Below, one piece after another: positions 8,367-53,273 of a stretch of DNA of 58,818 nucleotides. Positions within the stretch are counted from its first letter, which is position 1. Each line of letters starts with the position of its first letter. A program made the translations under genes and the position numbers. The DNA comes from a virus. The stretch is taken from IMG/VR virus record IMGVR_UViG_3300009129_000019, positions 1 to 58,818 of that record. One strand, given 5' to 3'. Below the pieces are notes generated by a model. The model had not been told where the DNA came from. It did no database searches and saw only the letters and a list, made by a program, of their open reading frames with translations.

Positions 8367-9014
8367 TCAAGGTTGTTTGTGTCTTAAAATAATAACTGAA
8401 TCGTTAAGCTTATCTCGGGTCATGTTATGTCTTAGGTCTATAATGTACAAATCAAGCTCCTCTTTAATTTTTTTAAGGTCCTCGAGCCATGGCTGCTGCT
8501 GCGGTAACATGGGCCAGTGCTCGGTGCCGGAAAGAGATCGCTGACCGTACGCAACGTCTTCGACTAAAAGGGCTCCTCCTTCATTTAGTAAATCATAATA
8601 CTCTCGTAAAAAAAACTCTTGAGATATTAAATTATGCGGCCCGTCATCAATAATTATGTCAAATTTACCATACTTTTTTTCTATCTCTTTGGTAAACTCA
8701 TCTGTGTACGCATTACCGATTTCTACATGCGCATAAGGTGTTTCCTCTATTCTATGTCTGTAAGCTTTTCTTACTTTATGTTGAATGTCTATCCCTACAA
8801 TTTTATTTATGTACTGCTCTCCTTGCTCTATGTAGGCGACCATGGAACCCCCCTTTGATGCTCCTATCTCTAACACGGATATCGCTTCGCCTTTTTGAAG
8901 GTATTGATGATTAAAAACTAAATCATAGATAGTACCGTAGGGGTGATTTTTTTCTTTATCTGTACCTCCAGCGGCTCCTATGAGAGACCTAAAAGTTTTT
9001 TTTAGTTTTATCAT
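8367..9014 (-). CDS. Class I SAM-dependent methyltransferase (sugar O-methyltransferase-like)
   Basis: 215 residues. The SAM-binding loop is VLEIGASKGG (48-57), the second acidic strand ends in GIDI (74-77), and the motif IIDDGPH (121-127) plus a GGALLVED strand near 145 is typical of the macrocin/rhamnosyl O-methyltransferase branch that often sits in polysaccharide gene clusters. The start overlaps the stop of the recA-like gene as ATGA, so the two are translationally coupled. In a phage with several glycosyltransferases the likely substrate is a sugar on a surface or virion glycan. That substrate is inferred; other small-molecule substrates cannot be excluded. Confidence 0.7.
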   Translation of the reverse strand: MIKLKKTFRSLIGAAGGTDKEKNHPYGTIYDLVFNHQYLQKGEAISVLEIGASKGGSMVAYIEQGEQYINKIVGIDIQHKVRKAYRHRIEETPYAHVEIGNAYTDEFTKEIEKKYGKFDIIIDDGPHNLISQEFFLREYYDLLNEGGALLVEDVAYGQRSLSGTEHWPMLPQQQPWLEDLKKIKEELDLYIIDLRHNMTRDKLNDSVIILRHKQP

Positions 9015-36652: not shown

Positions 36653-37534
36653 ATGCCACCAACTATGATCAAGAAAAACTACGGGCACACCGTATCAGTT
36701 TTACAAAACTCCAACAGCGTCACCGCCTCTTCTAAGGCGGACCTAGCCTCACTAAAGGAAGATAGTTATATTGTAATTGGCAGTGACCAAGAGTTTTATC
36801 GGATAGCCGAAAAGCAAAAGTTTTTATACGTAAAAGATGTACAGTCTCAAGGTACGGAGAATATAGTTATTAATGAAAATATAGGTACAAGTCTATCCGT
36901 GAACGATGAAATAAAATTTACTTATAAAGAATACAAAGTAAAAGAAGTTTCTATTCTAGACGGCGGTTCGGGATATAAAGAGGGCGATCAAATTAAGCCG
37001 TCTACGGGAGTATGCAAATACAACTCGCTAGACGAGATTGATATCCCCGCTTTATTTGTAGTTAAGTCTGTAAGCGCAAGCGGATCAATTAACTCTGTTG
37101 AAATTCACACTGAAGGCACATATAGCCTTGCTCCCGACGAAGAAGACGACGCCTCTTCAGGCTCAGGCTCCGGTGCCAAGTTATCTATTGTTTGCTCTTT
37201 GTTAGATAATAGATCAGTAGAGGAAAGAACTATCTCAGATATAGTTTTAAATGAAAACGAAACAGTTATTCGCTTAAACCATGCATTACCCCCAAGGGTA
37301 ATCGAGGGAACTCTCTCTGTAGAAAAATGGAATTTAATCTTAAACAGAAATTACGTGGGAGATAGTAAGTTTAATGTAGCTTATGAAGTTCTTAAAGACT
37401 TTACTCCCCATTACAAATTGCCCATCTTAAGAGGGGATTTAAGTAGTAATTATTTATTATATAATGAGTCTTTATCTATTTTAGATAATAAGATTAAAGA
37501 ATTAGAAGATAAAATTGATTCCTTAGGTTCCTGA
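36653..37534 (+). CDS. Virion protein with GSGY repeat and coiled C-terminus
   Basis: 293 residues. A GGSGYKEGDQIKPSTG repeat relates it to the preceding gene. A Ser/Gly linker (about 164-175) and a helical tail (LDNKIKELEDKIDSL) suggest trimerisation. RBS AAGGAATAAT is 0-2 nt before the ATG. The last 12 bp overlap the tape-measure gene of the opposite strand, so the two late operons collide here. Confidence 0.6.
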   Translation: MPPTMIKKNYGHTVSVLQNSNSVTASSKADLASLKEDSYIVIGSDQEFYRIAEKQKFLYVKDVQSQGTENIVINENIGTSLSVNDEIKFTYKEYKVKEVSILDGGSGYKEGDQIKPSTGVCKYNSLDEIDIPALFVVKSVSASGSINSVEIHTEGTYSLAPDEEDDASSGSGSGAKLSIVCSLLDNRSVEERTISDIVLNENETVIRLNHALPPRVIEGTLSVEKWNLILNRNYVGDSKFNVAYEVLKDFTPHYKLPILRGDLSSNYLLYNESLSILDNKIKELEDKIDSLGS

Positions 37535-40500
37535 TATATTTCCATCATACAATATACCGCCCGGGCGCTTCTGGTTTACCAGAACGTTAACGACCTGACC
37601 CTTGATCATTTCGCCTAACTTCTTGGCATTTGGCTCATTTAATCCTCCTCCTGAGGCGTCTGTAGCGGCAGAGCCATTTTGGTCTATGTTGACAGTTATG
37701 TTAATGTGGTTTGTTGAGCCCAGAACGTCTTCTCCGGCCGTTTCCGCACCCGTAGCACTACCGACATACCCTCCTTCAGCATAGCCCTTTATACGGCCAT
37801 TTCTGTTTAAATTATCAAAAAAGGCAACGCCGTGCTTGTCTACGATATCCTTGGGGATAACATACTCACCCTTAGATAGTAAAGAGAGCTCTCGATCTTC
37901 GATTGCTCCGCCCATATAGTTACGGTCCACCCCCGGCCATCTCGGGTTATTAAACGCGGGGTTCCGCCGCCCTTGCCATCTTCGTTGCCCAATTGGCCCC
38001 CCCATGGGAGCAGCAAGCGGATGCGGTTCTGCAAGATTACCAGCACCAGCGCCACCAGCGTTAGCGCCGCCCCACCAATTTTTAATTCTTCCCGGAACGC
38101 CCTTTACCCAATTACCAAATTTCCCGGGCTTAGCAGCAAAGGGGGCTCGTTGCCCCATCATGGGGTTCACCACCTGAGATAATAGGCTTATGCCTCCCAT
38201 CATAAATAGCATGTTCATCATTTTTTTTCTACGCCCCCTTGCTTCTTCTGCGGAGCTTGCCTCCCATTCTTTAATTTCGTCGTAGCGTCCTTTTCTGGCG
38301 TCCATGAGTTTATCATATTTGTCCATGCGAAATTTATTACGCGGATTATTTGGGTCAGTAAGCGCGAACTGGCTTAGTCTTTTGTCTATATCGTAACCGC
38401 TTGTGCCCTTGCCATAAAGGTATGAATTTTTTAAATTTATAAATGCGGACCCCTTACCATGCCTAGCAAATGATTTAAGGCCTGACTGCGGATCTGCATC
38501 ACCAAAGATGGGATCGTATTCGCTCGAATCTCTTCTGCTCGCTATTGTTCCACCAGTAGAGGCACCTCCGCTGCGATTTAGGTCGTCTAACATCATTTTG
38601 GTTGCGTAGGCATGATTGTACTCACCATGCCCATACCTAATGCTTCCACCTGAATTATATCCCGTTAAGCGACGACCACCATTTAAGGACTCAAGAAACT
38701 CTAAACCCAGCTTGTCTACGCTATTTGCTCTAATAACATATTCTCCCTTGCCGAGCATGGCGGGGACGGTATCTTTACCTCGGATGCCATTAGCAACATA
38801 ACCACCCTTATTGTAGCCCTTAACTAACCCACCCTGCTTCATAGGCATTCCCATAATAGGATTAAATAAGAACTGTTGTAGCGCCATCTTTATAACCATC
38901 TTGGCGGCCATGTCTCCGATCTCATTAAATAAATCTTTAAAGGATTCTTTGATATCTTTTGTTCCGTTAATCCAAGTCCAAACCGCGTCGTTGATTCCAT
39001 CTCTGAAAGTGTCACCGATGTTTACTAAAGCTTCTTGTGACACGCGAGCCATATCTCTCGTACTCATCGACCAACGCTCTTTCATTTCCTTGCCCATCAA
39101 GGAGAAAGAGTCACCGAACTCACCGGCCTTGATAGCGTCTTGTCTTCTCTTGGCTACTGCAGCAATCCTTTGTCCTTGGGAGGCTGTCGGGTCAGCTAAC
39201 ATCATTTTCATTTGCGCTTCGCCGGCTTTGTACACTTGCCTTGCGTTTTCTTCCTGTATGGCCGCGTGCTTTTTAAGTAATTCCTTTTCCTTTTCTGCAA
39301 ATTCGACCTGAGTAAGTCGGCCGGCGGCAACATGTTGTTGCCATTCCATTAACTGTTTTACTCTATCTCGCGCTTCCTTGCCGGCTTTGTTTAATTCCGT
39401 AAATTCTTCCAGCATGGATTCTGTGGCAGAAAGCTCGGCAATAAAGTCGGACATGCCTTCTTTAGTAAATTTGCCCGCCGCGACCATTTTTTCCGCGAAT
39501 ATCTTACCAGCATCAGATAAGGGGACTTGTATTTCTTTACCGTCTTTACCCTTGATTGTGCGAGTTTGATACATACCTTCAAGATCATCACCAAACCCCC
39601 CTTGCTCACTGAAATGATCAAAGACTTCCTTGGCTCTTGCCTTGAAACCGCTAATCAATTGCATGTTTTGGTCTACTCTTTCAGTCGCAAGATCTCCCAT
39701 ATCGAACAAGTCAGTTTTAAATCCGCCCGCCATTAATTCTCTATGAAATGCGCCGCCCTTACCCAGCATGAGTCCATCTCCGCCTAATTTAAATGGATTT
39801 TTATTTGCGGCATTTCCTATATTAGCCGTCCTTAAAGCTAGAAGCCTTCTCGCCAAAGGGGTTCCCGGAGGCATACCGCCCACGTAATGACCGGCCATAT
39901 TTACAGTTTTAAATGCTGTCGGATCTTGAGCAACATCACCGAGTTTTGGCTGTCCGATACCCGCGGAACCACCTTGTGGTGTGGTAAGGTAGCCTGCAGC
40001 CGCCAATCCGTGTTGCATCCTCTTATCTATTTGAGTGCTAACATTTTCAACTTGGTTCCAGTCAATACCGTAGCCGGACGTATCACCAAATTTCCAATTA
40101 TCGGGGTCGTCTATTTTTGCTCCAGCCATAGTCAGTGACTTTTGTCGCAAAGTGTTGAACTTTTTCCAAGCGTCTGCGTATGCTTTTATATTTGCGGTTT
40201 GCTCCTTCGTTAATTTAGTATCTTTTTTGAGGTCGTCTATGAGCTTCTTCGACGCAGCAGTTTGAGCATTAATCTCACCACTTTTCTTCTGGTGCTCAGC
40301 TTTAACCTGTTCCATCATCCAGTGTGGCAAAAACTCATCGAAAAGCCGAACCAGTTTGTTCTGTTCTTTGCCCCAAGAGCCCTTTTTGACAGCTTTCCAT
40401 CTTTGAGGGTCATACGTGTTTCGGATTCCAGACACTGGATTGTCTCTTCCGGCTAGGACCATTCCTCCTCCACCGATGGGGACTTGGTCGCCTTTCGTCA

Positions 40501-43500
40501 ATTTCATGATACTATTAACACCCAGCGCACCGCCAACCATTAATACCTCAGTTAATTCTTCCATCTTGCGAGCGAAGTCGGCCATTTCTCGAGTGTATTT
40601 GTGTACGTTCCCTTTAGGATCCTCGAAGGATCCCTGACGGAGTGCTTGCCCGCGTAGTTCCGGACGCACGTACTGGTAACCTTTGGGAGCCAAATGTGCT
40701 AATGCACCCCGAGCCGGACCCCCAAACCCCGCCGCATTTCCAGCTGCCTCCTTCGCTGCTTTTCTCATCCACATGAAGGGATCAGCGTGATGGCCCTGCG
40801 GGAGACCTTGGTTCATAGCGTCGCCGTGTCCTGCGGATCTTCTAAAGATATTCGACCAATAAGGGTCGTAAATCATGGTTTCAAAAGCCCCCATTCCTGC
40901 GCCCTTCCGTTGGCCGCTCGGTGTGAGACCGCCCTTGAACTGGGGTACCTTAGGTGCGGGAAGATTTCTCAATCGCATAGCGTTGGCTGCATCAAGAATG
41001 GCGTGTGTAGTATTTGCCGCCCCCCCTTTATCTACGTCAGCAGACAAAGCATTATACAGGGCGGCTTGATTTTGTCCGGACATCTCCCTGATGGCGCGTG
41101 TGTTCACATTAGGTAAAGCGGCGTTGCCAGCGGGCGAAGCAAAGCCTCTAAGCGCTAACGCAGCGGCTTCACCGGGTGAGCCGTATATTACGCCAGAAGC
41201 ATTTGCCGCCAGCGTCGAGCCGAGGGCGCGGCCGGCGGGGGGCACCGAGGCCGGGATGGCGCCGGAGGCCACGGCAGATTGGATGATTCCGCCCCCCGAC
41301 ACTGCATACTGTTGGAGAGCTTTATGTGCTGCACCAGTTTTGCCTAAGGCTGAAAAATTTAATGGGTCGGCTCCGGGTTGACCACCCGCAAATTTAACTT
41401 GTCCGGCCACACGGCCTTGCGCAAATTGCGCACGACTCGGTAGGTTTTGATTTCCAGATTGTAGTTTAAGACCCGCTGCCATCATGCCGCCAAATGATGA
41501 AAGCGGTGCATGTGTAAATACATCATCCATGATTTTTGCTAGATCTTGGTTAAAGCCCTTTAGAGTTCCTACCATATCGTCTGTAATGGTACCTTCGTAA
41601 TCTTTATCGCCTATTTTATATTTATATTTTCCGCCGACATCAGATTGTTGATAAAAATCAAGAAGCAATTGATGACTCGGATGGGTTAGCACATTCTTCA
41701 ACCCCCCCTGATCAACGATACCTTGCAAAATATTTTCTGAAGTTTTTTTCAAGCCCTTAATTGTTTTAACTTCTTCATCTAAATACATCATCCTAAGTAA
41801 GGATTGATTTAACAAGTTAAAGCCACTCTCATTAAGATTAACGATGTTGTTCGATGCGGACATCGTCTGACCCGTGATTTGCTCGCTTAAGGCTGATAAT
41901 TGACCTTCGCGCACGGAGCCCTCTTCTTTTGATACTTCAAAGGCATTCTTCCTTTGTTGTTCTGCTATTTTAACAGCATTTTGATACCCTTTCTTGTGGC
42001 TTTCAGTTGCCAAGTGCTCTTGACTACCCACAATATTATTCGCTGCCATGCCCATCGTCGTAGACGTCGCATTACCCGCTGACCAGATCGTAGTATCCAG
42101 TGCTGTACGTTGTCGGTGATGCTCTGTCAATTCCTTCTTTGAGATTTCGTTGGCGTTTCTAAGTTCTAATCTTTCTCGTTCCTTGGCTACTTGCAACGCT
42201 CCGTCATTAACATCGGCCGCTAGCTTATCCATCCCAACAGTTCTTAGTGCGCTAATAAAGGCTGATCTGTTTTTTCTTTCAAGTTCATTACCTTGTAATT
42301 CTAAAATTCTATTTAAAGCTTTTATACCCGTATTCATTTGTATGATTTGGTCGGGTATTTCTTTCATTTTTAATTGTTGACCAATTTGCTCTGCGGCAGT
42401 CCTTTTTCTTCCTTCTTCTGAAAGAGCCTGCTTAAAAGAAGCCGCGATATTGTTTCTGTCTGCATCACGCTTTATGATAGCTGCCCTGTTTGGGTCCGTC
42501 TTAACTAGTTTCTCTGCTCTTGCATACTCTATATCTTTTTGTTTCGCTGCAAGCTGTTCGATAGTCATGCCAGTAATATCTTCCACATTTGCTTTCGCGG
42601 CCAGCGTTTGTAACCTTAAGCTTTCCATTACTCCATGCATACTTTGGCCGACTAACGGACCAAAAGCTTCTGGGCCTAATCTTTCGCCAGTGACCCCACG
42701 TATTTTTAAATTATTTATTAGCGTGTCAAGCGTATTCATGGCATCTCTACCACGCCCTATGCTTCCATTCGGATTTTCAAAAAACATTTCTCCAGATCCC
42801 GCGCGACCCGGAGCAAACGCTCGCGCACCATTTTGTGCGCTATAAAATCCCTTTATTTGACTTTCGAATATGTTATGAATTTTTTCAAAATTTTTGGGCA
42901 TTAGAGCTAAACCAGCGGGGCCCATAAAATCTTTAATTCCACCATAACTAGCCATTCTTTCTTGAGCTCTTAATATTTCTTTTTGTAGCTGGGACTCTTC
43001 TTCGAGTATCATTCTCTGCCTTAAGGTCTCGTCTGCAATAATAGCTAATTCATTTTGCAGTGAGCTTTCTACTCTACTAAAGTCCGAGCTAAATTTTTCT
43101 GCCATAACTCTAGCGTTTTCAATACCGGCTTCCTTAAACGCTCCATGTAATCTGTCCACAAATTTTTCATTAACGTCAAAGTCCGCGGGATTATCTTTAA
43201 TACTTCTTAAATGAGCTTCAATTACTGGCAACAGCGCTTGCTGCATCGCCGCGGCTCGCGAGGCGTCTCTCATCATCTTCGTATCTTCAGATTGCCCGCT
43301 AGCTTGTTGATTTCTAATTGCAGCCAACTTATCGTTAGCCTTAGTCATTTGTTCATTAGTTATCTTCCAAACTTCATCAGTAGCTTTTGTTATAGCGTCT
43401 CTATTTTTAATAATATTTTCAGCTGTGATTTTATTTAATCCTATTAATGTTTTGTATTGTTCGTCTTCTATATCCCCCAAGAAAGGTTTGCTTCCTTCGT

Positions 43501-46500
43501 ATAGTTTACCGGCCCTCATGGCTGCCAAGTCTACGCCAAATTTTAATCTATTTTCTTGGAGTTTTCTTAAGGTGTCAGCATATTCTTTTTCCATCGCAAT
43601 ACGATTAGCTAAAACGGCGTTAACAATTTTAGTTTCCTCCGCGACCCTTTGCATTTGTATTCTGTATTGATGATTAATCGCTTGTAATCTCTTTTGCCTT
43701 TCTGCGGCGAGCGCTGTACTATCAAAGGCATCCTTGGCCGTTTTGACTTTCTCTGCTAAATCTTTGGCTGCTTCAGCCGCGTCCTCTTCATTTTTTCCCA
43801 GTTCTTTAACGTCATCAATATACCCCTCGGGAATACCAAGTTCTTGCATAAGAGCGACGAATGAACGCATCTCACTCTGGTCCATTTCTTCGCCCATATC
43901 TCCCACAAATCTTTCTAATGCTGCGACATTTACATTTCCTACGTGCCCTTTTAACATCTCGGAGTCTACCTCTCGGAATAATCTATTGCTAAACGCCTCC
44001 TGTCTACGAGACCCTGCCGTACCTTCGCCGAACATTCTATCGCCGCGTTGTACATCCATTCCGGCCCAGCGAGCAGCCTTTCTTGTCCAATCTACAAACC
44101 ATCCTCGCTCTTCATCTAATTCTTGTGCAAATTCTTTTCTACCGGCAGTTTGGCGTTCACGATCTTGTAATTCCTTCGCCATGGAGCTAAACAGTTCCTT
44201 AATCTTTTCTGTATCGCCCTTGGCTGCAGCAATTTTAGCTTGCATGTCGGCAGGTAACTCCATCAGGGCATCATTTAACGCTTTTTCTCTTTTAGCATAG
44301 TCCTCCGGCTTCATATTAGGATCCGAGACAGCTTCTTCCATTTGCCCGAATGCTGTTAAAAATTTTTGAGAGCTATTATTAAAGTCCGTGAGCTTTTGCT
44401 TAGCTTTTTCATGCGCAGCGGTTAAATCTGGAAGGACGCTAAGTTGAGAGTCCAATACTCCGCTTAGTGCTTGGAAGCCGCCAACTACACCACCAATTAT
44501 GGCTAAGTAGGGGTTGCCCGTCATGGCTCCCATCATAGCGAAGTTAGCTCCGCTTTCCACGCCGCTTACGGCAGTCTCTGTTCGCATTTTACCTGCTGTA
44601 TCTTGAGGTCCTAGCGCGCGGGCTGTACCGCCTACCATGGGCATCATCATCATTCCGGCCATCGCGCCGCCGCCAGACATAAAATTCATATATTTACCGC
44701 CCTTGCCGGGAGCACCTTCGATTCCCCCTCCTGTTCCTGCAACCATTTGGGACGTTTTCGTAGCGGTCGCATTATGGGCTGCAGCTTCTTTATTTATGGC
44801 GGCGGAATTTTTCTTATGAGCCGCGAGCTCTTCATTTAGCCCCGCTATATTTTTGTCTATTGCGGCGTTTTTACTTCTAGCTTTACCAACAGACTTTTTG
44901 CCTTCGTTAATCTCTTCATTAATTTGAGCTATTTCCTTTTCAATTGCCCGAACCCTTCTCTTCTTGATGTCCTCCTCGGCCATGCCGCGCATACCTTTGT
45001 ATTCCGCTTTTTGTTCGGGGGAAAGAGAGCTCACTTTAGTATTTTTATCAAGCCCCATGGCTTGCATAGTTTCTCTCCGGATTGCGTCTTTACCTACGGG
45101 CTTGGCGTCTACGGCAGCCCTTTTGGCTTGAAGCTCGGTTAGCTTTTGAGTTCTTTGTGTGTGCTGTTCAATTATTTGAGCGTTCTTTTTGTATTTTGCT
45201 GAGTTTTTATCTATCTCTTGTTGAAGCTCTTTTGAGGCTGCGGCTTCATTCTTTTTAGCTTCATTTACTTTTTCTGCAAGGGCGCGCTGTGCTTCGCCCA
45301 AAGCTTTAGATTGCTCAGAAAGCTGCATAAAACCGAACCCAGCCATAGCCGCTCCAGCGGAAATAGCTGCGAAGTCTAGCCCTGTTCCTCCACCGCCCTC
45401 GGCAAAGTTCGGTACGTGCCCTTCTGCAGCGAGCATGTCCTGCATTTTTCTGGAGTTTTTAATCGCATTCGGCATTCCCTCCGGATGGTCTCTCCTTACA
45501 TCTCCAAAGCTTTTTTGAGTTTTATCATCTCTAACGTAATATCCCACGCTGGAATGATAATCTAATACAGGTTTACCTCCCATCCGCCTTTCTGCCTCAA
45601 AGGCATCTTGTAACGGGGAGAAGTTCGGAACAAAACCATGGGACTTTTTAATTCCCTTTTCTATATTGTACTTTTTAGCCATGCTGCGAAGGTTATCGTT
45701 TGAAACTGAATTTTTAAAGTCCGCATGGCGAGTTTTATAATTACTAAAAAGTCTTCTTACTGATCCTGTGCCCTTGGTTCCACCCCGCACATCCCAAGTT
45801 ACGCCCTCTTTATCTACGTTTCTAGAGAAAGCGGCATTAATTGCTGACTCGAAAAGCGTACCTACGGCCGCGGCGACTGCTCCCTTGTTGTAGTATTTTG
45901 ATGGGTCCATTTTTGCCCCGAGGGGAGGATCAATCATTCCACTATACTGGCTAGCTACACCAGTCAGCGCTTTTTTGGTAGCGTCATGCAGCCCCTCGAA
46001 CCCTTTACCGCTTTTCATTTTATTTTTTGAATAGCCCCTTACGGGCACGGAATATTTTGAGCCTTGATAAATGAATTGGTGATTTTTGTTTGCTACACTC
46101 GCTGCCATGGGAACTAGCATAGTTGCCATTTCGCCGATATTTCTTGCTGGCCCGGGCTTGTTTTGAGCTTTGCCGTGCTTTTGAGTACTAATAAAATTAG
46201 GAATAAGACCGCCTGAATAAAATAAACCCTGTTTATGGGCCGCTACAGCATTTTTTGTATCGAACCCCATAGCAGCGTTCATCTCGCGGAGGCTGTTCAT
46301 TTCTCCAGCCGTGTATTTAGAAATTTCAGTACCCCTGTTTCCTATAGCCTTACCCGTAGTTCTCTGCAGTTTATCCAAAAGCATTCCTGCTTGTGGATCA
46401 TCTTTTTTAGACTGAAGTCTTCTACGAAGATGCCTAAGGCTTGAACTGTTATTTTCGTATAAAGTTTTAGCAAATATTTGAGCAATTTGTTTTGTTTTTA

Positions 46501-48877
46501 ATTCTGGTTTAGATTCTACAGGAAAATTTCTGCCCCCCGCTTTTTGGCCTAAGTCGTAAGGGGTTTTGGGAGCAGTAACACTTGGGTCCCTTTGAAATCT
46601 GTTTATACCAAAAAAGCCGGGTCGGGCAGCTATCGCTCTTTCTGCCTGTGTGCCCTTAAGATCTGCTGCTCTACCCGTACCTCTTGCGAAGGCCGCGGAT
46701 TCTTTACTGGTCGGACCCGGCACTTGCCCCATAGTATGAATGTTTACTTTTTCTCCGGGAGTTAATGCGTACCCGAGTATGGGCCTGAGCCAAGCGGGAG
46801 TACCTTGGCTCTTTATCAACTGCTCTTTAGTGGTTGAAAGTTTTCTGTCCATAGAGCCGGTTTTCCCAGAGCCCTTTTTATGAAAGGCTGTTCGCAAAGA
46901 AGTGAGAACCTCCATCATATTCGGAACGAAACCACCACTGGCATAAGGATTAAATCCGTGTTGCCCCTGAAAACTTTGGCTGTAAGCCTTCCCCGCCGGG
47001 CTCCCTGCCGGGGGCATAATAGCGGGCTGTTTGAAATTAGGAAAATATTTTATTTTTTCAGCGGTATTATAAGTTACCTGTCCATAGTTAGGTATGAACC
47101 TTTGCCTTACGTCTCCCGGCGTATACCCTCCAGCTACAGCCCCCATCATTTCTGCAGCGTCGCCTTTAAAATTCGGAATAAAACCCCCGTGCTTTCTTCT
47201 TACTAATGTAGTCGTTCCAGCGCTCTTGTCGATCTTAGCTCCAACACCACCAGCAACTACCCCGGGAGCCATAGTTTTAGATAATCTCGCAATAGCCTCT
47301 CTTGCTCTAATTTCATCCTTTAAAACCATAAGAATTTCTCGCTCGACAGTAAGACGAGACTTTTCTTTCGTTTCTATTGCTTGGACTAGTTGGGGAGAAT
47401 TTTGTAAAATAGATTGTATTTGCTGTTGGATAGCGGCTTGCTGTTGACTATTTTTATTTAAGTTCATCATATCTATGGTAGACTTGCCAAGGAACTTGGT
47501 AAAATCAATAAACAACTTGCCAGCAATAGATACCAGCGCCACTAATCCCGGTCCCTGTAAGAAGTTACCGATCGATTTAAATATTCCCTCACCTAACCTC
47601 TTACCAAATTGACCAGCCTCTTTTTCATCGAAACCGAAAAAGCTTCCTATGTCACCAAAAATCTCAGTCTCTTCAGCCAACTTGTTAAAACTGCCTAATA
47701 ACTTTTTGAAAACGGGCTCGAAAGTCATCTTACCTATTTCTGAACCCATCTTAGTAAGGTTCTGTACGGTTTCGTTAAGCATGGCAGCCATAGTTTTATT
47801 AAGCTGCGCATTTCTTCTTATAGCCTCGTCAGTAGAATTATTAGCCGTGCTTAAAGCTTGAGAATAAACAGAATATCCACTACCCAAGTCCTTCAAAAGA
47901 GCTTTTAATATGTTCATCTGGTAAACGCCACCAACTAATTCGGCAGTCTGCGCCTTAACCTGAGGAGTTAAGCTTTCATAAGCTTTTGCTAAGTCCCTAA
48001 GGATATTCATGGCGGGTCTCATTTCGCCAGTAGTCTCTTTAACTTGAACACCCAAGAATTTTAATTGATTAATAACCTCAGTTCTTTGAATTCTAGTAAA
48101 GATAGTTTTCAAAGAGTTACCAATAACATTACCTCCACGAGCAGTAGTCTGCTGGACAGAGGTAACCGTAGCTAACAATTCATTAAAAGTAACATTAACA
48201 CCCTCTGCGCTAGCGCCGACACGCCTAATGGCTTCAGCTAGGTCATTTGTGCTAACAGCAAAAGCGGCGTCAACATTTGCCATTTTATTAATGATCTCGG
48301 TAGAAGTAAGCGCGGACTTATTAAAACTGTTAATAGCTGCTGTAAGAGAGTTCACGGCAGATTGAGCGTCCATGCCACTTAATCTCATTAAAATGAGAGC
48401 GTCTCTCGTTCTAGTAAGGGTTTTTTCCATGGATAAACCCTGACGAGCAAATTCTCCAGCGGCTTCGCCCACCTCGTAGAAGCTTTGGCCAGTCTTCTTG
48501 GCTATATCAAAAAGCCCGGCTCCGAATTTCTTAAGGTTTCTTTCTGATTGATTAAGGATTACATTAACGTCAGCGAGAGTTTTTTCTACTTCAATTGCGG
48601 CCTTAGCCATTTCAGAAAACGCTCTAGTAACAGTAAATAGAACTCCGGCAGAAGCAGTAAAGGCAATAACACGAGCATTAGAAGCTTCAAGAGACTTGTT
48701 AAATTCTGAAACAGAACCGGTGATTTTACCGAGAGGTTGGGTAAATTTTCTGTGATCTATACCCTTAAGGTTTATTTGGGTTCGCTCAGCCTTTTTAGCA
48801 AAACGCGCCAATTCACGTTCTGCCTTATCAACGCGTAGCCTAAGATCTACAATTATATCAGAATCTGATCGTGCCAT
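37523..48877 (-). CDS. Giant tape measure protein, 3784 residues
   Basis: Sets tail length and is ejected on infection. Residues about 65-280 hold the TP901/PhageMin_Tail core (AAIEVEKTLADVNVILNQSE, GEFARQGLSMEKTLTRTRDA). From about 560 to 1155 seven G-x-x-P-N-(F/Y/M) motifs delimit small modules. One (about 1000-1055: GTLFESAINAAF, TWDVRG, HADFKNS) looks like a PD-(D/E)XK-type nuclease core. Long coiled-coil regions follow (1165-1300, 1600-2300). Hydrophobic segments near 1435-1475 could cross a membrane. The C-terminus has two copies of the common SKGEYVIPxDIVDKHG-type motif. At 1.5 Å per residue it predicts a tail near 570 nm. AAAGGG precedes the ATG. The gene is the largest in the window, and its 3' end overlaps the convergent gene by 12 bp. 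Confidence 0.92.
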   Translation of the reverse strand: MARSDSDIIVDLRLRVDKAERELARFAKKAERTQINLKGIDHRKFTQPLGKITGSVSEFNKSLEASNARVIAFTASAGVLFTVTRAFSEMAKAAIEVEKTLADVNVILNQSERNLKKFGAGLFDIAKKTGQSFYEVGEAAGEFARQGLSMEKTLTRTRDALILMRLSGMDAQSAVNSLTAAINSFNKSALTSTEIINKMANVDAAFAVSTNDLAEAIRRVGASAEGVNVTFNELLATVTSVQQTTARGGNVIGNSLKTIFTRIQRTEVINQLKFLGVQVKETTGEMRPAMNILRDLAKAYESLTPQVKAQTAELVGGVYQMNILKALLKDLGSGYSVYSQALSTANNSTDEAIRRNAQLNKTMAAMLNETVQNLTKMGSEIGKMTFEPVFKKLLGSFNKLAEETEIFGDIGSFFGFDEKEAGQFGKRLGEGIFKSIGNFLQGPGLVALVSIAGKLFIDFTKFLGKSTIDMMNLNKNSQQQAAIQQQIQSILQNSPQLVQAIETKEKSRLTVEREILMVLKDEIRAREAIARLSKTMAPGVVAGGVGAKIDKSAGTTTLVRRKHGGFIPNFKGDAAEMMGAVAGGYTPGDVRQRFIPNYGQVTYNTAEKIKYFPNFKQPAIMPPAGSPAGKAYSQSFQGQHGFNPYASGGFVPNMMEVLTSLRTAFHKKGSGKTGSMDRKLSTTKEQLIKSQGTPAWLRPILGYALTPGEKVNIHTMGQVPGPTSKESAAFARGTGRAADLKGTQAERAIAARPGFFGINRFQRDPSVTAPKTPYDLGQKAGGRNFPVESKPELKTKQIAQIFAKTLYENNSSSLRHLRRRLQSKKDDPQAGMLLDKLQRTTGKAIGNRGTEISKYTAGEMNSLREMNAAMGFDTKNAVAAHKQGLFYSGGLIPNFISTQKHGKAQNKPGPARNIGEMATMLVPMAASVANKNHQFIYQGSKYSVPVRGYSKNKMKSGKGFEGLHDATKKALTGVASQYSGMIDPPLGAKMDPSKYYNKGAVAAAVGTLFESAINAAFSRNVDKEGVTWDVRGGTKGTGSVRRLFSNYKTRHADFKNSVSNDNLRSMAKKYNIEKGIKKSHGFVPNFSPLQDAFEAERRMGGKPVLDYHSSVGYYVRDDKTQKSFGDVRRDHPEGMPNAIKNSRKMQDMLAAEGHVPNFAEGGGGTGLDFAAISAGAAMAGFGFMQLSEQSKALGEAQRALAEKVNEAKKNEAAASKELQQEIDKNSAKYKKNAQIIEQHTQRTQKLTELQAKRAAVDAKPVGKDAIRRETMQAMGLDKNTKVSSLSPEQKAEYKGMRGMAEEDIKKRRVRAIEKEIAQINEEINEGKKSVGKARSKNAAIDKNIAGLNEELAAHKKNSAAINKEAAAHNATATKTSQMVAGTGGGIEGAPGKGGKYMNFMSGGGAMAGMMMMPMVGGTARALGPQDTAGKMRTETAVSGVESGANFAMMGAMTGNPYLAIIGGVVGGFQALSGVLDSQLSVLPDLTAAHEKAKQKLTDFNNSSQKFLTAFGQMEEAVSDPNMKPEDYAKREKALNDALMELPADMQAKIAAAKGDTEKIKELFSSMAKELQDRERQTAGRKEFAQELDEERGWFVDWTRKAARWAGMDVQRGDRMFGEGTAGSRRQEAFSNRLFREVDSEMLKGHVGNVNVAALERFVGDMGEEMDQSEMRSFVALMQELGIPEGYIDDVKELGKNEEDAAEAAKDLAEKVKTAKDAFDSTALAAERQKRLQAINHQYRIQMQRVAEETKIVNAVLANRIAMEKEYADTLRKLQENRLKFGVDLAAMRAGKLYEGSKPFLGDIEDEQYKTLIGLNKITAENIIKNRDAITKATDEVWKITNEQMTKANDKLAAIRNQQASGQSEDTKMMRDASRAAAMQQALLPVIEAHLRSIKDNPADFDVNEKFVDRLHGAFKEAGIENARVMAEKFSSDFSRVESSLQNELAIIADETLRQRMILEEESQLQKEILRAQERMASYGGIKDFMGPAGLALMPKNFEKIHNIFESQIKGFYSAQNGARAFAPGRAGSGEMFFENPNGSIGRGRDAMNTLDTLINNLKIRGVTGERLGPEAFGPLVGQSMHGVMESLRLQTLAAKANVEDITGMTIEQLAAKQKDIEYARAEKLVKTDPNRAAIIKRDADRNNIAASFKQALSEEGRKRTAAEQIGQQLKMKEIPDQIIQMNTGIKALNRILELQGNELERKNRSAFISALRTVGMDKLAADVNDGALQVAKERERLELRNANEISKKELTEHHRQRTALDTTIWSAGNATSTTMGMAANNIVGSQEHLATESHKKGYQNAVKIAEQQRKNAFEVSKEEGSVREGQLSALSEQITGQTMSASNNIVNLNESGFNLLNQSLLRMMYLDEEVKTIKGLKKTSENILQGIVDQGGLKNVLTHPSHQLLLDFYQQSDVGGKYKYKIGDKDYEGTITDDMVGTLKGFNQDLAKIMDDVFTHAPLSSFGGMMAAGLKLQSGNQNLPSRAQFAQGRVAGQVKFAGGQPGADPLNFSALGKTGAAHKALQQYAVSGGGIIQSAVASGAIPASVPPAGRALGSTLAANASGVIYGSPGEAAALALRGFASPAGNAALPNVNTRAIREMSGQNQAALYNALSADVDKGGAANTTHAILDAANAMRLRNLPAPKVPQFKGGLTPSGQRKGAGMGAFETMIYDPYWSNIFRRSAGHGDAMNQGLPQGHHADPFMWMRKAAKEAAGNAAGFGGPARGALAHLAPKGYQYVRPELRGQALRQGSFEDPKGNVHKYTREMADFARKMEELTEVLMVGGALGVNSIMKLTKGDQVPIGGGGMVLAGRDNPVSGIRNTYDPQRWKAVKKGSWGKEQNKLVRLFDEFLPHWMMEQVKAEHQKKSGEINAQTAASKKLIDDLKKDTKLTKEQTANIKAYADAWKKFNTLRQKSLTMAGAKIDDPDNWKFGDTSGYGIDWNQVENVSTQIDKRMQHGLAAAGYLTTPQGGSAGIGQPKLGDVAQDPTAFKTVNMAGHYVGGMPPGTPLARRLLALRTANIGNAANKNPFKLGGDGLMLGKGGAFHRELMAGGFKTDLFDMGDLATERVDQNMQLISGFKARAKEVFDHFSEQGGFGDDLEGMYQTRTIKGKDGKEIQVPLSDAGKIFAEKMVAAGKFTKEGMSDFIAELSATESMLEEFTELNKAGKEARDRVKQLMEWQQHVAAGRLTQVEFAEKEKELLKKHAAIQEENARQVYKAGEAQMKMMLADPTASQGQRIAAVAKRRQDAIKAGEFGDSFSLMGKEMKERWSMSTRDMARVSQEALVNIGDTFRDGINDAVWTWINGTKDIKESFKDLFNEIGDMAAKMVIKMALQQFLFNPIMGMPMKQGGLVKGYNKGGYVANGIRGKDTVPAMLGKGEYVIRANSVDKLGLEFLESLNGGRRLTGYNSGGSIRYGHGEYNHAYATKMMLDDLNRSGGASTGGTIASRRDSSEYDPIFGDADPQSGLKSFARHGKGSAFINLKNSYLYGKGTSGYDIDKRLSQFALTDPNNPRNKFRMDKYDKLMDARKGRYDEIKEWEASSAEEARGRRKKMMNMLFMMGGISLLSQVVNPMMGQRAPFAAKPGKFGNWVKGVPGRIKNWWGGANAGGAGAGNLAEPHPLAAPMGGPIGQRRWQGRRNPAFNNPRWPGVDRNYMGGAIEDRELSLLSKGEYVIPKDIVDKHGVAFFDNLNRNGRIKGYAEGGYVGSATGAETAGEDVLGSTNHINITVNIDQNGSAATDASGGGLNEPNAKKLGEMIKGQVVNVLVNQKRPGGILYDGNISGT

Positions 48878-48921: not shown

Positions 48922-49938
48922 TTAGCTGTGTAATTTCATGATATCATCTAATTCTACAACGCCACCTTTGCTTTTCACGTAGTCGATCAAGTCTACGTCT
49001 CCCTCTTGTGGGCCCATGCCTAAAAGCTCTAAGTCTTCAGCGGTGGCGCCCACAAGGCTGGTTGCAGCATTTTCTGCGCCCTCTCTACTCCGGCCATCGT
49101 TTTTGTCCATAAACTCTTCAGCTTTTTTAGACATCTCATAAAATTCAGCTAGCTTGTCGGGGTCCTCCATCATTTCTCTTGGGGGCTTACTCTTCGCCTC
49201 GGAGGCCAAATGCTTAAAATACCTACCGAAAGCAAATAATTCAGATTGGTAATAAGTTAATTTAACAATTGGTACTCCATAAAATATATAAGGGTTATCT
49301 TCGGATAGATAAAAAAAGTTAACAAAAAATCCACACAAAGCTATTCTTTTTAAGTTGTCTATAGTTAAGTTACTAACCCCCATGTTATACGTAGCCAATA
49401 ACCGTGTCATATCTTCGTCAGTTAATGAATCGTATTTTTCTTCGGGCAGGGCGGACTCTTTAAAATCTTTGTCTTTATATAAAACCTGAAGCATATAAAG
49501 CTCATTAGCTTTTTTAGCCGCGTAAGCTTCAGCAGTTAACCCCACGAGCTCCTTTTTCTTTAATTCTAATGAGGATATTTCATTTTGAGCTTCTTCTATT
49601 TGATTATCTATTTCTACTATTTGAGATTTTAAAAACAAATTCGCTTTCGTGTCGCCAAGAGTATTTAACATTCCTTTTAGTTCGTATATCTTTCTTTCTT
49701 CCGCTTCTGACCACAAGCCTTCTTTTTCTAAATAAATCGTTTGCTCTTTTTCGGTGGGTAGACCTAGCTTTTTTGCTTTTGTTAAAGCTTTTTCTTGTTC
49801 TTTATCGGTAGATATGGAGTCGAAAACGTTAAGGTGCTTGGAATAAACCGTACCGATTGGTGTATTATTTATTTTTGTATAACCGTTCAATATATCGAAA
49901 TATAGACTTTTTAATTCTGTTTGTGTCGGTTTACTCAT
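48922..49938 (-). CDS. Tail assembly chaperone-region protein, 338 residues
   Basis: Between the tail tube gene and the tape measure, where siphoviruses encode tail assembly chaperones. A central Glu/Lys coiled coil (about 85-145) and a soluble helical rest; no known family is recognised by eye. Its start is placed immediately behind a Rho-independent terminator whose GGGGG arm is the only Shine-Dalgarno-like sequence, so its level may be kept low relative to the gene before. A frameshift linking it to the 287-residue gene was looked for and not found. Confidence 0.6.
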   Translation of the reverse strand: MSKPTQTELKSLYFDILNGYTKINNTPIGTVYSKHLNVFDSISTDKEQEKALTKAKKLGLPTEKEQTIYLEKEGLWSEAEERKIYELKGMLNTLGDTKANLFLKSQIVEIDNQIEEAQNEISSLELKKKELVGLTAEAYAAKKANELYMLQVLYKDKDFKESALPEEKYDSLTDEDMTRLLATYNMGVSNLTIDNLKRIALCGFFVNFFYLSEDNPYIFYGVPIVKLTYYQSELFAFGRYFKHLASEAKSKPPREMMEDPDKLAEFYEMSKKAEEFMDKNDGRSREGAENAATSLVGATAEDLELLGMGPQEGDVDLIDYVKSKGGVVELDDIMKLHS

Positions 49939-49941
49939 AAC

Positions 49942-49965
49942 AAAAAAGCCCCCTGTTACGGGGGC
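49942..49965 (-). terminator. Terminator touching the next start codon
   Basis: GCCCCC, loop GTAACA, GGGGGC, then six T; the ATG of the 338-residue gene begins 4 nt beyond the T-run. It lies between two genes of the same direction. Confidence 0.8.
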
Positions 49966-49980
49966 GGAATGTACTATGCT

Positions 49981-50844
49981 TTATTCACCCTCTTTTTCGT
50001 CGGGCTCCTCTTTTTTCTCTTCTTCGGTCTCCGCTTCAGCCTCTTCTTCGGTCTCCTCTTCGGGGGAGAGCTCTTCCCCTTCCTGCTCGCGCTCTATTAA
50101 GTCCGCTTGTTCAGCATATTTTATTAGCTCTATAAACTGTTCTGGATCACTAGTCTTACTTACATACCAGAAGCTAATATAATAAAAGAATTTATTAATT
50201 ACATCTAAATTAAAATCCTCTTCCTCTTCTTCATAAGAATCATATTTTAAAATTCTAGAGTCAAAATCTCCGTCCCCAAAGAAAGGGGTCTCATTATCTT
50301 GATCGTCAATAGAATAACTTAAATACAATACCCACCAAAGAATGGTTTTGTTTCGAGCTCTATTCTCTGCGGTTTGGTCATAGAGAGAAGACTGCTGCAT
50401 TTCGAATTCTTGCACTCTTGCCCTAGCTTCCTTCAGCCAGTCTTGTAGCTCTTCGAATTTTTCGTTTTCCTCTGCGCTTCTCTCTTCCTTTGTTTTTAAA
50501 GAAAGCGCTTGATGTTCAACTTGCTTTTCAAACAACTCTTCATATAATCCCTGAAATTGCTCTTTCTCTTTATCGCCTAGTACGCCACCATCATTACTAA
50601 ATCTTTTCGCTAATAAAGCTCTAGTAAGTAGCCCCGCCTTAATACCTTCCGATAACTTAACCCCATAATATAATTCGGCTTCATCAAATAGTCTTCTCGT
50701 CGGTCTTTTAATAAAAAACTTTCTGTCTACGGTTTTTTCTACCTCCGTAGTGGTTGATACCTCCTGACCTTGATCGTTTTTTTCTGTAGTAGTTTCTTTT
50801 ATCTTTTGTTTATTAGGTAATTTAAATTCATATAGTTTTTTCAT
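49981..50844 (-). CDS. Tail assembly chaperone-region protein, 287 residues, very acidic tail
   Basis: A helical, charged protein. After a basic N-terminal strand region, a coiled coil spans about 115-170 and the last 40 residues are nearly all Glu/Asp/Lys (EEETEEEAEAETEEEKKEE). AAGGAATAATT precedes the ATG, and the gene follows the 76-residue gene by 2 nt. Position between tube and tape measure suggests the role of gpG. The acidic tail could keep the tape measure soluble before assembly, a suggestion only. Confidence 0.6.
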   Translation of the reverse strand: MKKLYEFKLPNKQKIKETTTEKNDQGQEVSTTTEVEKTVDRKFFIKRPTRRLFDEAELYYGVKLSEGIKAGLLTRALLAKRFSNDGGVLGDKEKEQFQGLYEELFEKQVEHQALSLKTKEERSAEENEKFEELQDWLKEARARVQEFEMQQSSLYDQTAENRARNKTILWWVLYLSYSIDDQDNETPFFGDGDFDSRILKYDSYEEEEEDFNLDVINKFFYYISFWYVSKTSDPEQFIELIKYAEQADLIEREQEGEELSPEEETEEEAEAETEEEKKEEPDEKEGE

Positions 50845-50846
50845 AA

Positions 50847-51077
50847 TTATTCCTTATTAAAGTTTATATCAAACCCATCCATAGTTTCTTCGAATTCTCT
50901 TATTGTATCGTTACCGAAATCTAAGACTCTTTTTCTAATTTTTTGATAAGAGTCGTTATTCAAGGGTTCCCCCTTATCCTTAGCGTCTTCAATAAGAAAC
51001 AAAAAAGATTTGCACAAGTTAATAGTCTTGCGCTTGTGATGAAATTTAATAAACTCTTTCGCCTTGTTCCCTTCCAT
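50847..51077 (-). CDS. Small basic protein downstream of the tail tube
   Basis: 76 residues with Lys/Arg-rich first half (FHHKRKTINLCKSFLF) and acidic end. No family recognised. An AT-rich element AATGTATAATATTATGAGG (51088-51110) precedes the ATG by about 12 nt and resembles the other virion promoter elements. It follows the tube-gene terminator, so it likely begins a new transcript with the two chaperone-region genes. Confidence 0.55.
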   Translation of the reverse strand: MEGNKAKEFIKFHHKRKTINLCKSFLFLIEDAKDKGEPLNNDSYQKIRKRVLDFGNDTIREFEETMDGFDINFNKE

Positions 51078-51124: not shown

Positions 51125-51151
51125 AAAAAAAAGCCCCCCAAAATGGGAGGC
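51125..51151 (-). terminator. Terminator after the tail tube gene
   Basis: GCCTCCC, loop ATTTT, GGGGGGC (one wobble pair), then eight T. It ends the tube mRNA, so the tube can be made at much higher level than the following genes. Confidence 0.85.
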
Positions 51152-51176
51152 TTGTTAGATTAATTGTTACTTAGTC

Positions 51177-52343
51177 TTAGCTTACTGACGCGCCGCTCAA
51201 GAAGAGACCGACGTCTGTTTGAGAAGACGAGCCAATCTGAGAGCTCCAAGAAAGCGTCGCAGTCTTGTTGTCACCGATCGACGAACTGTAGGACTGACTA
51301 TCAAGCTTGGCGCCCTTAAGGACGGCAGCGATATGAGAAGTCGAGCCCTTTTTCATTTCAACAGTGATATCGTGGCTGCTGTCCAAATCGATAATATTCG
51401 ATAGCGCACCGGACTTGAAATCACCCACGATTGCGTCACACGACATGGAGACAGTAATCGGGAAGGTAATTTCTCTTGCGAATGCAAATCGGCTACCCAA
51501 TTTGTTAATCGGCTCACGAGCCATATCAAAGCTAATATTGAAGCTTTGGATCTTTTGGTCATCAACAATATCAACACCACCACCCGGATTCGGGATGGTT
51601 AAGGTAATGTCGCCGGGCTTAAGCGCGGTTGTCGCGTTACCGGGATGAACGTGACTGGTATAACCTGTTGGCAAGCTATAATACTTATCGGTATTTGCTG
51701 ATCCGTCTGCTGGGTTCACGTGAGGAGCAAGCACGAATGCCTCGTCTCTATCTCCTCCTCCGGGCATAACTTGGTCTACGTGACCACCGGTACCGAACAT
51801 GAACTTCATGTTCAGCGCTTCTACATTAGCGCTAGCAGTTGGAAGTCCACCCACGGCACCTTCTAAAGTATATGAAGATAAGAAGCCGTTACCGATACCA
51901 ATTACGGTTGATTCTACTTCTGAACCGTTACCGCCGTCACCGGTTAATAAGGTAGAGTTATGATTTACGTCTGAACCCGCCTTAACAACACGCACGTAGT
52001 AATTTCTCTCGTCAGCATTATTGTCGAGAATATCGGTTAAAGCCGAAGTCAAGGTATCCGCTACCTTAAGTCCGATTACCGACTCATTATAAAAGCTGCA
52101 CGTGTACCAAGAAAAATCCAAACCGACGGTAGGACTCTCCAAGACTACACGGTCAATCGCAGCTAGGTTACCGAATTGATTGACATCTTGCCTCGCTACA
52201 TCAAAGTTGTAGTTAACACTTTGGATTCGATGTAATTGCTTAGGAGCATAAGTCGCCCCTGTCTCTTGTCTCCAGTTAGCGCCGTCTTTCTTCGGGCCCG
52301 CATAGAGAGCTTGACTTTGATAAATGATTCTATTTCTGGCCAT
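51177..52343 (-). CDS. Major tail tube protein with internal duplication
   Basis: 388 residues. Two copies of the tube-type core occur at about 40-80 (RIQSVNYNFDVARQDVNQFG) and 263-303 (KIQSFNISFDMAREPINKLG), so one chain would replace two subunits and six-fold rings would be made by trimers, as known for T5 pb6 and for a long-tailed Thermus phage. Preceded by a good promoter-like element and ribosome binding site AGAAGGAATT, and followed by a strong terminator, both fitting a highly expressed structural gene. Position directly before the chaperone and tape-measure genes supports the call. Confidence 0.82.
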   Translation of the reverse strand: MARNRIIYQSQALYAGPKKDGANWRQETGATYAPKQLHRIQSVNYNFDVARQDVNQFGNLAAIDRVVLESPTVGLDFSWYTCSFYNESVIGLKVADTLTSALTDILDNNADERNYYVRVVKAGSDVNHNSTLLTGDGGNGSEVESTVIGIGNGFLSSYTLEGAVGGLPTASANVEALNMKFMFGTGGHVDQVMPGGGDRDEAFVLAPHVNPADGSANTDKYYSLPTGYTSHVHPGNATTALKPGDITLTIPNPGGGVDIVDDQKIQSFNISFDMAREPINKLGSRFAFAREITFPITVSMSCDAIVGDFKSGALSNIIDLDSSHDITVEMKKGSTSHIAAVLKGAKLDSQSYSSSIGDNKTATLSWSSQIGSSSQTDVGLFLSGASVS

Positions 52344-52406: not shown

Positions 52407-53273
52407 TTAACTCGCTCGAGGAAAACGGTACGCCTCTAACTCAAAATCTATTATTGCCTTAAATACGTCTGGGTTAGTATTTTTTAAATTTTCCATATAA
52501 CCCAAACTAAACCTTGATACTTCCACAGAGTTAATAAATACCGTGTTTTGTATCGAATTAGTCATTCCCACATAGTTATATACACCAGATTTTAGTCCGC
52601 CGAACGCATTAAATGGATAAAAATCATCGTCTATTAATGGGACGTTTAGTTTATTACTATCTTTGAACACTGAGCAGACTGCATCTAGGTTAAATTGTGA
52701 GTCAGCGAGGACTATCGCTCTAATATTTATTTCAGTTCTGTCTTCGCCCCCCAAAGCGAATGGCTCGTTCTCTCCGCCGTTATTCTTAAGAAAAACTGCT
52801 GGATATGTTTCCGCTTCTGGAGCTAGACCAGTCTCTATTTGAGTTGTCGCCTCACGCAAGTTAATTTTGTCTTCGAAAAGCAGTTCCTGCTCGGCTTTAC
52901 TGGTTAAATATACATTAAAATCTTTTACGGCATAACTGCCACTTACAACGGCATCATCAGCTATGACACCGCTTAGATATACTTGCCCTTGGTCATAGTT
53001 AATGTCATATAATGGATACTCTCCAGTATTTTTAAAGTCCGAGGCGGTTGTACCGCTAATATACACTCCGTCAGCTACCGTTGCTCCAGCTATAGAGGAG
53101 TCATTCACAAATTGTTTGTACGGGGCGCCATATGAAGTATACCCATAATAGGTTGTTCCCACGGGGTAAAATTTAGAGCTATGATTAGTATAAGCTTCCC
53201 CCTTATCTAAAAGGTGATGATCAAACCACAGGTAAAAACTAGACATTACCCTATTTTCGTATTGAGTTTTCAT
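52407..53273 (-). CDS. Neck / tail-terminator-region protein, 288 residues
   Basis: Soluble beta-rich protein located just before the tube gene, where a tail terminator or second neck protein is expected. It contains Tyr/Gly-rich strands (TTYYGYTSYGAPYKQF) and a compact C-terminal alpha/beta part. The start overlaps the preceding stop as ATGA. Longer than typical gpU-type terminators, so the function is by position only. Confidence 0.5.
   Translation of the reverse strand: MKTQYENRVMSSFYLWFDHHLLDKGEAYTNHSSKFYPVGTTYYGYTSYGAPYKQFVNDSSIAGATVADGVYISGTTASDFKNTGEYPLYDINYDQGQVYLSGVIADDAVVSGSYAVKDFNVYLTSKAEQELLFEDKINLREATTQIETGLAPEAETYPAVFLKNNGGENEPFALGGEDRTEINIRAIVLADSQFNLDAVCSVFKDSNKLNVPLIDDDFYPFNAFGGLKSGVYNYVGMTNSIQNTVFINSVEVSRFSLGYMENLKNTNPDVFKAIIDFELEAYRFPRAS

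What the first reader, a model, noticed from the sequence alone, without database searches (positions are those of the whole stretch)
49930..49990. Terminator adjoining a start codon inside the tail chaperone region
GCCCCC/GGGGGC with a T-run ends 4 nt before the ATG of the 338-residue gene. The GGGGG arm is the only ribosome-binding-like stretch and would be hidden in the stem. Read-through and unfolding would both be required for expression, giving a low fixed ratio between the two proteins, the outcome lambda obtains with its G/GT frameshift.
Basis: partly seen in the sequence, partly recalled or inferred. Interest (0 to 1): 0.5.

Follow-up and report, generated by a model that had tools for sequence, protein, structure and literature searches.

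The report
Terminator throttling a second tail-chaperone-like gene
In an uncultured phage family, the second of two related proteins encoded between the tail-tube and tail-ruler genes always seems to be made at reduced level, in many members by a transcription stop signal placed right against its start codon, apparently doing the job that phage lambda does with a ribosomal frameshift.

Summary
The hairpin is real. On the minus strand, GCCCCC-GTAACA-GGGGGC (49965-49948) and six T end 3 nt before the ATG (49938) of the 338-aa gene ("T"), 15 nt after the TAA of the 287-aa gene ("G"). It is one of only two strong intrinsic terminators in the window. I compared 109 distinct G/T junctions from uncultured relatives. 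In 31, a sequence-diverse terminator hairpin sits at this spot, with its T-run almost touching T's start codon; 30 of these start with ATG. In the other 78 the gap is mostly short or overlapping, and T starts with TTG (41), GTG (24) or an ATG without a Shine-Dalgarno (13). No T gene has an unobstructed ATG plus Shine-Dalgarno (0/108; 0/47 clusters), against 100/106, 70/108 and 99/106 for three neighbouring genes. So T looks under-expressed by design, through alternative cis brakes. G and T are distant paralogues (profile E 2.3e-4), and lambda-type frameshift fusion is impossible in the hairpin class. The chaperone label is positional. Closest analogue: the M13 gene VIII/III terminator. No expression data exist.

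The parts
49948..49965 (-). terminator hairpin GCCCCC-GTAACA-GGGGGC
49942..49947 (-). T6 (U-run) directly after the stem; ends 3 nt before the ATG
49981..50844 (-). G: 287-aa protein, upstream member of the pair (putative tail assembly chaperone); TAA at 49983-49981
   Evidence: family alignment; AlphaFold2 model mean pLDDT 84.6
48922..49938 (-). T: 338-aa protein, throttled downstream member; distant paralogue of G
   Evidence: profile comparison; model mean pLDDT 84.0
49936..49938 (-). ATG start codon of T
   Evidence: first ATG/GTG/TTG after the in-frame stop; start position matches relatives
51131..51153 (-). second strong terminator, after the putative major tail protein; found in 79 of 80 loci examined
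50847..51077 (-). 76-aa gene ('SM') between putative major tail protein and G; used as control gene
51177..52343 (-). 388-aa putative major tail (tube) protein, by position only
   Evidence: no family match
52407..53273 (-). 288-aa gene ('A3') upstream of the putative tube gene; used as control gene
37523..48877 (-). tape measure protein, 3784 aa, next gene after T
   Evidence: PHROG tail length tape measure families, best E 3e-54; Pfam PF10145 E 4.9e-30

Best explanation
The hairpin plus U-run is a leaky intrinsic terminator between two related genes. The first (G) is needed in large amount and the second (T) in small amount. Some RNA polymerases stop there, so fewer transcripts carry T (and the tape-measure gene behind it). 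On transcripts that do read through, the same hairpin lies inside the ribosome landing site of T, where no other Shine-Dalgarno exists, and keeps T's translation low as well. Other members of the family obtain the same under-expression with a TTG or GTG start, or an ATG without a Shine-Dalgarno, placed at or near G's stop codon. SHOWN by sequence: the hairpin, its placement, its recurrence with varied stems, T's consistently handicapped start, the lack of a frameshift route in the hairpin class, G-T paralogy. INFERRED: that it terminates in vivo, that T is scarcer than G, that G and T are tail assembly chaperones, and that the purpose matches lambda's 30:1 G:GT ratio.
For: Terminator form with U-run at this junction in 31 of 109 junctions, 22 of 47 clusters at 70% identity. 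Stems vary, including a two-sided change G-C to A-T between L126 and L214. The stem starts 14-36 nt after G's stop and ends 4-14 nt before T's start; for tR2, termination is lost when the stem is only several bp from the stop, and is tuned by distance up to about 30 bp (PMC4824070, passages). T start codons: ATG 43, TTG 41, GTG 25 of 109, against 3/87, 4/106, 1/109 and 1/107 non-ATG for the four other genes in the same loci. Unobstructed ATG plus SD: T 0/108, SM 100/106, G 70/108, TMP 99/106. In the 53 weak-start T genes of the first set of 83, the first in-frame ATG is at codon 34 or later. Cost of opening -20..+3: 17.0 kcal/mol in hairpin T, 5.4-5.7 in other T classes, 3.2 for G. The terminator detector found 0/80 at SM-G, 0/81 at T-TMP, 0/83 inside G, 3/83 inside T. 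Paralogy: score 38.1, E 2.3e-4 over 176 columns; the nine other gene pairs 17.3 or less, reversed T 17.5, 100 column shuffles at most 22.9.
Against: No transcript or protein data. The swap of hairpin for weak start is not significant once shared ancestry is allowed for: 5 independent pairs on supported branches, median sign-test p 0.625. The A3 gene upstream also lacks a Shine-Dalgarno in 62 of 87, so the '13 ATG without SD' class is not peculiar to T; G itself reaches the SD threshold in only 70 of 108 and has a weak SD in many hairpin-class phages. At cluster level, ATG-without-SD versus non-ATG-with-SD is not significant (Fisher p 0.28). A terminator would lower the tape measure too, whereas a weak T start would not. 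L216 has both hairpin and GTG. L151 and L152 have a hairpin without U-run before an ATG.
Confidence: 0.64

Rival explanations
1. Ordinary terminator: it merely ends the major-tail-protein/G transcript, T and the tape measure have their own promoter inside G, and the closeness to the ATG is only genome compaction.
For: Terminators are common at gene ends; a terminator also follows the putative major tail protein (79 of 80 loci). Promoter-like matches on the minus strand exist near G, e.g. 50872-50843.
Against: Promoter-like matches are at chance level (40 found, 35.3 expected), and a promoter upstream of the hairpin would also be terminated by it. Compaction does not explain why the next-gene start after the putative major-tail-protein terminator is 34-83 nt away, usually with its own SD, but 4-14 nt away here, nor why T has weak starts where the hairpin is absent.
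Confidence: 0.17
2. Translation-only device: the hairpin acts mainly by blocking ribosome landing, and little transcription stops there.
For: High predicted opening cost (17.0 against 5-6 kcal/mol); the same gene has weak starts in relatives; L151/L152 have a non-terminator hairpin there.
Against: Selection for translation alone would not need a U-run, yet only 3 of the 78 junctions without a terminator form have a spacer of 40 nt or more that could hold a plain hairpin, against 31 with stem plus U-run (the detector requires the U-run, so this is a contrast of counts, not a test).
Confidence: 0.12
3. Recoding: G and T are joined in one protein by frameshift, stop read-through or ribosome hopping over the hairpin, as a direct equivalent of lambda GT.
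For: In the window G and T are in the same frame with no further stop between them; this is so in 5 of 31 hairpin junctions.
Against: In the hairpin class T's frame overlaps G by 4 nt at most; 26 of 31 cannot fuse by stop read-through; T has its own start at a homologous place. Matching take-off and landing codons, looked for by eye in the window, L002 and L004 (listing), were not seen.
Confidence: 0.03
4. The hairpin protects the 3' end of the major-tail-protein/G mRNA against nucleases (or is an RNase III site), without a ratio role.
For: Any GC-rich terminator stem can do this (established knowledge, recalled).
Against: Does not explain weak T starts where the hairpin is missing.
Confidence: 0.07

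Closest known systems
M13/f1 central terminator between gene VIII and gene III
   Same: Looked at directly in M13: gene VIII stop, 15 nt later a GC hairpin with T-run, then gene III start 56 nt after the gene VIII stop. An abundant coat protein is followed by a minor one. That gene III depends partly on read-through is recalled, not read here.
   Different: M13 has a Shine-Dalgarno (GGAG) between T-run and ATG; here there is none. That the two M13 proteins are unrelated is recalled, not tested.
Lambda gpG/gpGT programmed -1 frameshift (tail assembly chaperones)
   Same: Position just before the tape-measure gene; two products, one wanted in low amount (molar ratio 30:1, PMC5009743 passages).
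   Different: No overlapping frame or frameshift fusion in the hairpin class; T is a separate, distantly related gene with its own start.
Two-gene tail chaperones of some T4-like phages (Vladimirov et al. 2022, seen only as cited in PMC10885494)
   Same: Short and long chaperone forms come from two genes instead of a frameshift.
   Different: There the long gene is described as a fusion containing the short form; here T is a diverged paralogue aligned over most of G. The expression device of the T4-like case was not read (paper not held).
Position effect of terminator tR2 (PMC4824070, passages)
   Same: Stop-to-terminator distance tunes termination through the last ribosome; distances here (14-36 nt) fall in and around that range.
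   Different: Reporter study; no start codon abutting the U-run was at issue in the passages read.

Membership tests
Intrinsic (Rho-independent) terminator | short GC-rich stem with small loop | tested here: met
   6 GC pairs, 6-nt loop, gap fold -14.9 kcal/mol
Intrinsic (Rho-independent) terminator | U-run directly after the stem | tested here: met
   TTTTTT directly after the stem
Intrinsic (Rho-independent) terminator | terminates transcription | not testable with these tools
   needs RNA 3'-end mapping
Lambda-type G/GT frameshift chaperones | lies directly upstream of the tape-measure gene | tested here: met
   tape measure by PHROG E 3e-54
Lambda-type G/GT frameshift chaperones | second frame overlaps the first so that a frameshift makes a fusion | tested here: not met
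   overlap 4 nt at most in 31 hairpin junctions; largest in all 109 is 47 nt
Lambda-type G/GT frameshift chaperones | sequence or fold match to known tail assembly chaperones | tested here: inconclusive
   no PHROG or Pfam chaperone match; T model against BFVD: 4 of the 8 best rows are named tail assembly chaperone but E is 0.09-0.85; G model: no row so named among the 50 shown, apart from a baseplate hub assembly chaperone at E 0.9
Lambda-type G/GT frameshift chaperones | low second:first protein ratio | not testable with these tools
   only start-signal comparison available
M13 VIII/III-type read-through terminator | terminator between two genes of one operon, close to the second start | tested here: met
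   placement met; abundance of the products not measured
M13 VIII/III-type read-through terminator | Shine-Dalgarno between T-run and start | tested here: not met
   GTT only in the window; no GGA/GAG/AGG after the U-run in any of 31 (L011, whose T-run is interrupted, by eye)
T4 gene 60-type bypass | matched take-off and landing codons (feature recalled) | tested here: not met
   by eye on three junctions only (window, L002, L004) in the listing

The most novel reading that the evidence does not exclude
A whole uncultured phage family has replaced the classical tail-chaperone frameshift by gene duplication plus interchangeable cis brakes on the second copy: a terminator pressed against the start codon, or TTG/GTG at the stop of the first gene, or an ATG without Shine-Dalgarno. 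In the terminator class the ribosome finishing G could itself tune read-through, because the stop-to-stem distance (14-36 nt) spans the range in which termination depends on that ribosome, so T would be coupled to G's translation. T dosage would thus be the conserved trait and the mechanism the free variable.
Probability: 0.4. Interest if true: 0.75.

Novelty: new variant of a known kind. Interest (0 to 1): 0.6.

Why it matters
If true, it shows that the low second-chaperone dose needed for long-tail assembly can be set without recoding, and that evolution keeps the dose while swapping the device. It gives a natural series of 109 junctions for testing how tail length control depends on chaperone ratio, and an annotation rule for phages in which no slippery site can be found.

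Tried and rejected
G-T fusion by frameshift or stop read-through: rejected as a general route. Ribosome hopping: no matching codons by eye in three junctions. Known RNA families: none in the window. Relatives in named phage genomes: none by DNA or protein for G or T, so no annotation or expression data could be borrowed. Bacterial and archaeal genomes: 70 pattern matches, none confirmed. PHROG/Pfam for G, T, SM and the putative tube protein: nothing above weak scores; a sub-threshold Pfam HobA hit to G (E 5e-4, below the curated cut-off) was not pursued. Solved structures by profile: none for G or T. Fold comparison with the PDB gave only helix matches. Hidden-RBS reading: weakened by the control. 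Literature: ten searches. No listing named a terminator at a tail-chaperone start, but most subscription papers are not held; the M13 searches found no usable text.

Known flaws in my own calls: one search used loops of 10 at most and missed L025 (found). In one search the tape-measure model was built with three of five rows mis-framed by one base and cut at the first stop; it still found the gene in 81 of 83 loci, all with ATG. Two SM rows in that call carried a likely over-long start. SD energies left out the last 3 nt before the start; one search repeats them with the full stretch, and the zero for T is unchanged. In one search three rows (L009, L011, L202) are mis-parsed because outer pairs were counted. 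Dropped rows: L169 (G start cut off); L124 left out of the 108-row tree and cluster counts because its G protein equals another's. Each related-loci run kept at most 80 loci (108, 184 and 178 relatives existed), so the 109 junctions are a sample, not a census.

Full report
Setting. The window is a virus record of 58,818 bases. On its minus strand lies a tail operon: a 388-aa putative major tail protein, a 76-aa gene (SM), a 287-aa gene (G), a 338-aa gene (T) and a 3784-aa tape measure protein. Only the tape measure is identified by family (PHROG E 3e-54; Pfam PF10145 E 4.9e-30). G, T, SM and the putative tube protein have no convincing family match. 'Tail chaperone' is therefore a name by position.

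Observation. Between G and T the minus strand reads TAA, 15 nt, GCCCCC GTAACA GGGGGC, TTTTTT, GTT, ATG. It is one of two strong terminators in the whole window, the other following the putative major tail protein at 51153-51131. Dinucleotide shuffles give a mean of 0.4 such sites per window.

Relatives. Named phages hold no homologue of G or T at the thresholds used. IMG/VR does. After removal of identical junctions, 109 distinct G/T junctions remained from 295 held sequences with both genes; one locus was dropped. Thirty-one carry a terminator-like hairpin between G and T: 22 of 47 clusters at 70% identity. In all 31 the gap is 42-61 nt; in the other 78 it is -20 to 49 nt, with only four of 36 nt or more. 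The stem starts 14-36 nt after G's stop and ends 4-14 nt before T's start. In L024, L025, L085 and L139 the T-run directly touches the ATG. Stem sequences differ widely, and a two-sided G-C to A-T change separates L126 from L214.

Control junctions. The detector used found hairpins at 21 of 83 G-T junctions, 0 of 80 SM-G, 0 of 81 T-tape measure, 0 of 83 inside G, 3 of 83 inside T, and 79 of 80 behind the putative major tail protein. In that last group the next start is 34-83 nt away and usually has its own Shine-Dalgarno (SM: 101 of 106 at -4 kcal/mol or lower).

T is handicapped everywhere. With one start-picking rule for all genes, ATG is used by 84/87 A3 genes, 102/106 SM, 108/109 G, 106/107 tape measure, but 43/109 T (41 TTG, 25 GTG). 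In the 53 weak-start T genes of the first set of 83, no in-frame ATG occurs before codon 34. Of the 43 ATG starts, 30 lie behind the hairpin; the other 13 have Shine-Dalgarno energies of -2.0 kcal/mol or weaker. So an unobstructed ATG plus Shine-Dalgarno occurs in 0 of 108 T genes (0 of 47 clusters), against SM 100/106 (43/47), G 70/108 (29/47), tape measure 99/106 (41/45), A3 25/87 (14/39); thresholds -3 and -5 give the same zero for T. A3 shows that lack of a Shine-Dalgarno alone is not special in this operon. The hairpin class also has a far larger predicted cost of opening the landing site (median 17.0 against 5.4-5.7 kcal/mol in other T classes, 3.2 for G, 5.8 for SM, 7.0 for the tape measure).

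Ancestry. On a 108-row G+T tree the hairpin label needs 7 changes, 5 of them forced by supported branches. In the window's own small clade of five, three members have the hairpin, one (L001) has GTG without hairpin and one (L008) has ATG without Shine-Dalgarno. The hairpin-ATG association is strong by plain counts (29/30 against 13/78; 21/22 against 6/25 clusters, Fisher 6e-7), but the test on independent pairs has only 5 pairs and a median p of 0.625. That the brakes replace one another is therefore suggested, not proven.

G and T are paralogues. Profile comparison of 108 G with 109 T sequences gives E 2.3e-4, score 38.1 over 176 colinear columns; the other nine gene pairs score 17.3 or less, reversed T 17.5, and 100 column-shuffled T profiles at most 22.9. 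The AlphaFold2 models (mean pLDDT 84.6 and 84.0) share the order beta-hairpin, then helices of about 20, 10, 24, 30 and 17 residues; T has one extra helix in front of the beta-hairpin. A search of T's model in BFVD put tail assembly chaperones in 4 of the 8 best rows, none significant (E 0.09-0.85).

Mechanism. Best reading: a leaky terminator plus an occluded start. It cannot be a frameshift fusion: T's frame overlaps G by at most 4 nt in the hairpin class. The paper on tR2 (PMC4824070, passages only) shows that termination rises with stop-to-stem distance and is maximal beyond about 27-30 bp, so distances of 14-36 nt leave room for tuning by the ribosome finishing G (inference).

Known relatives of the idea. 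Lambda makes gpG and gpGT at 30:1 by frameshift (PMC5009743, passages). Some T4-like phages use two genes instead (PMC10885494 citing Vladimirov et al. 2022; only the citing passage seen). M13 places a terminator between genes VIII and III, 15 nt after the stop, but with a Shine-Dalgarno after the T-run. The present case combines two separate paralogous genes with a start codon pressed against the U-run. I found no description of it in the ten searches made, in a library that lacks most subscription papers.

Noticed in passing
51131-51153 (-): The other strong terminator of the window, behind the putative major tail protein, recurs in 79 of 80 loci examined, 34-83 nt before the SM start; together with the G/T hairpin it would give a stepwise fall in transcription along the operon.
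   Followed up: partly
L048 and relatives, start of T (e.g. L043, L047, L058): TTG-start T genes often carry an out-of-frame ATG just before the TTG (TAATGATTG); 29 of 65 non-ATG, non-hairpin junctions have an out-of-frame ATG over or within 8 nt of the start, which might act as a decoy.
   Followed up: partly
L151 and L152, gap before T: A 40-nt gap with a hairpin of about -11 kcal/mol but no U-run, before an ATG without Shine-Dalgarno; close relatives use GTG with almost no gap.
   Followed up: partly
L216, G/T junction: The only junction with both the terminator hairpin and a GTG start.
   Followed up: no
L024, L025 (223 nt) and L216 (144 nt), between SM and G: Unusually long gap between SM and G, perhaps an extra small gene.
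   Followed up: no
37523-48877 (-): A tape measure protein of 3784 aa, implying a very long tail.
   Followed up: no
13316-15781 (-) and 9011-10105 (-): Ribonucleotide reductase large subunit (Pfam E 2.5e-178) and a RecA-like protein (E 3.2e-16).
   Followed up: no
30850-35922 (+): 1690-aa central tail fibre J-like protein (PHROG E 2.3e-151) on the strand opposite to the tail operon.
   Followed up: no
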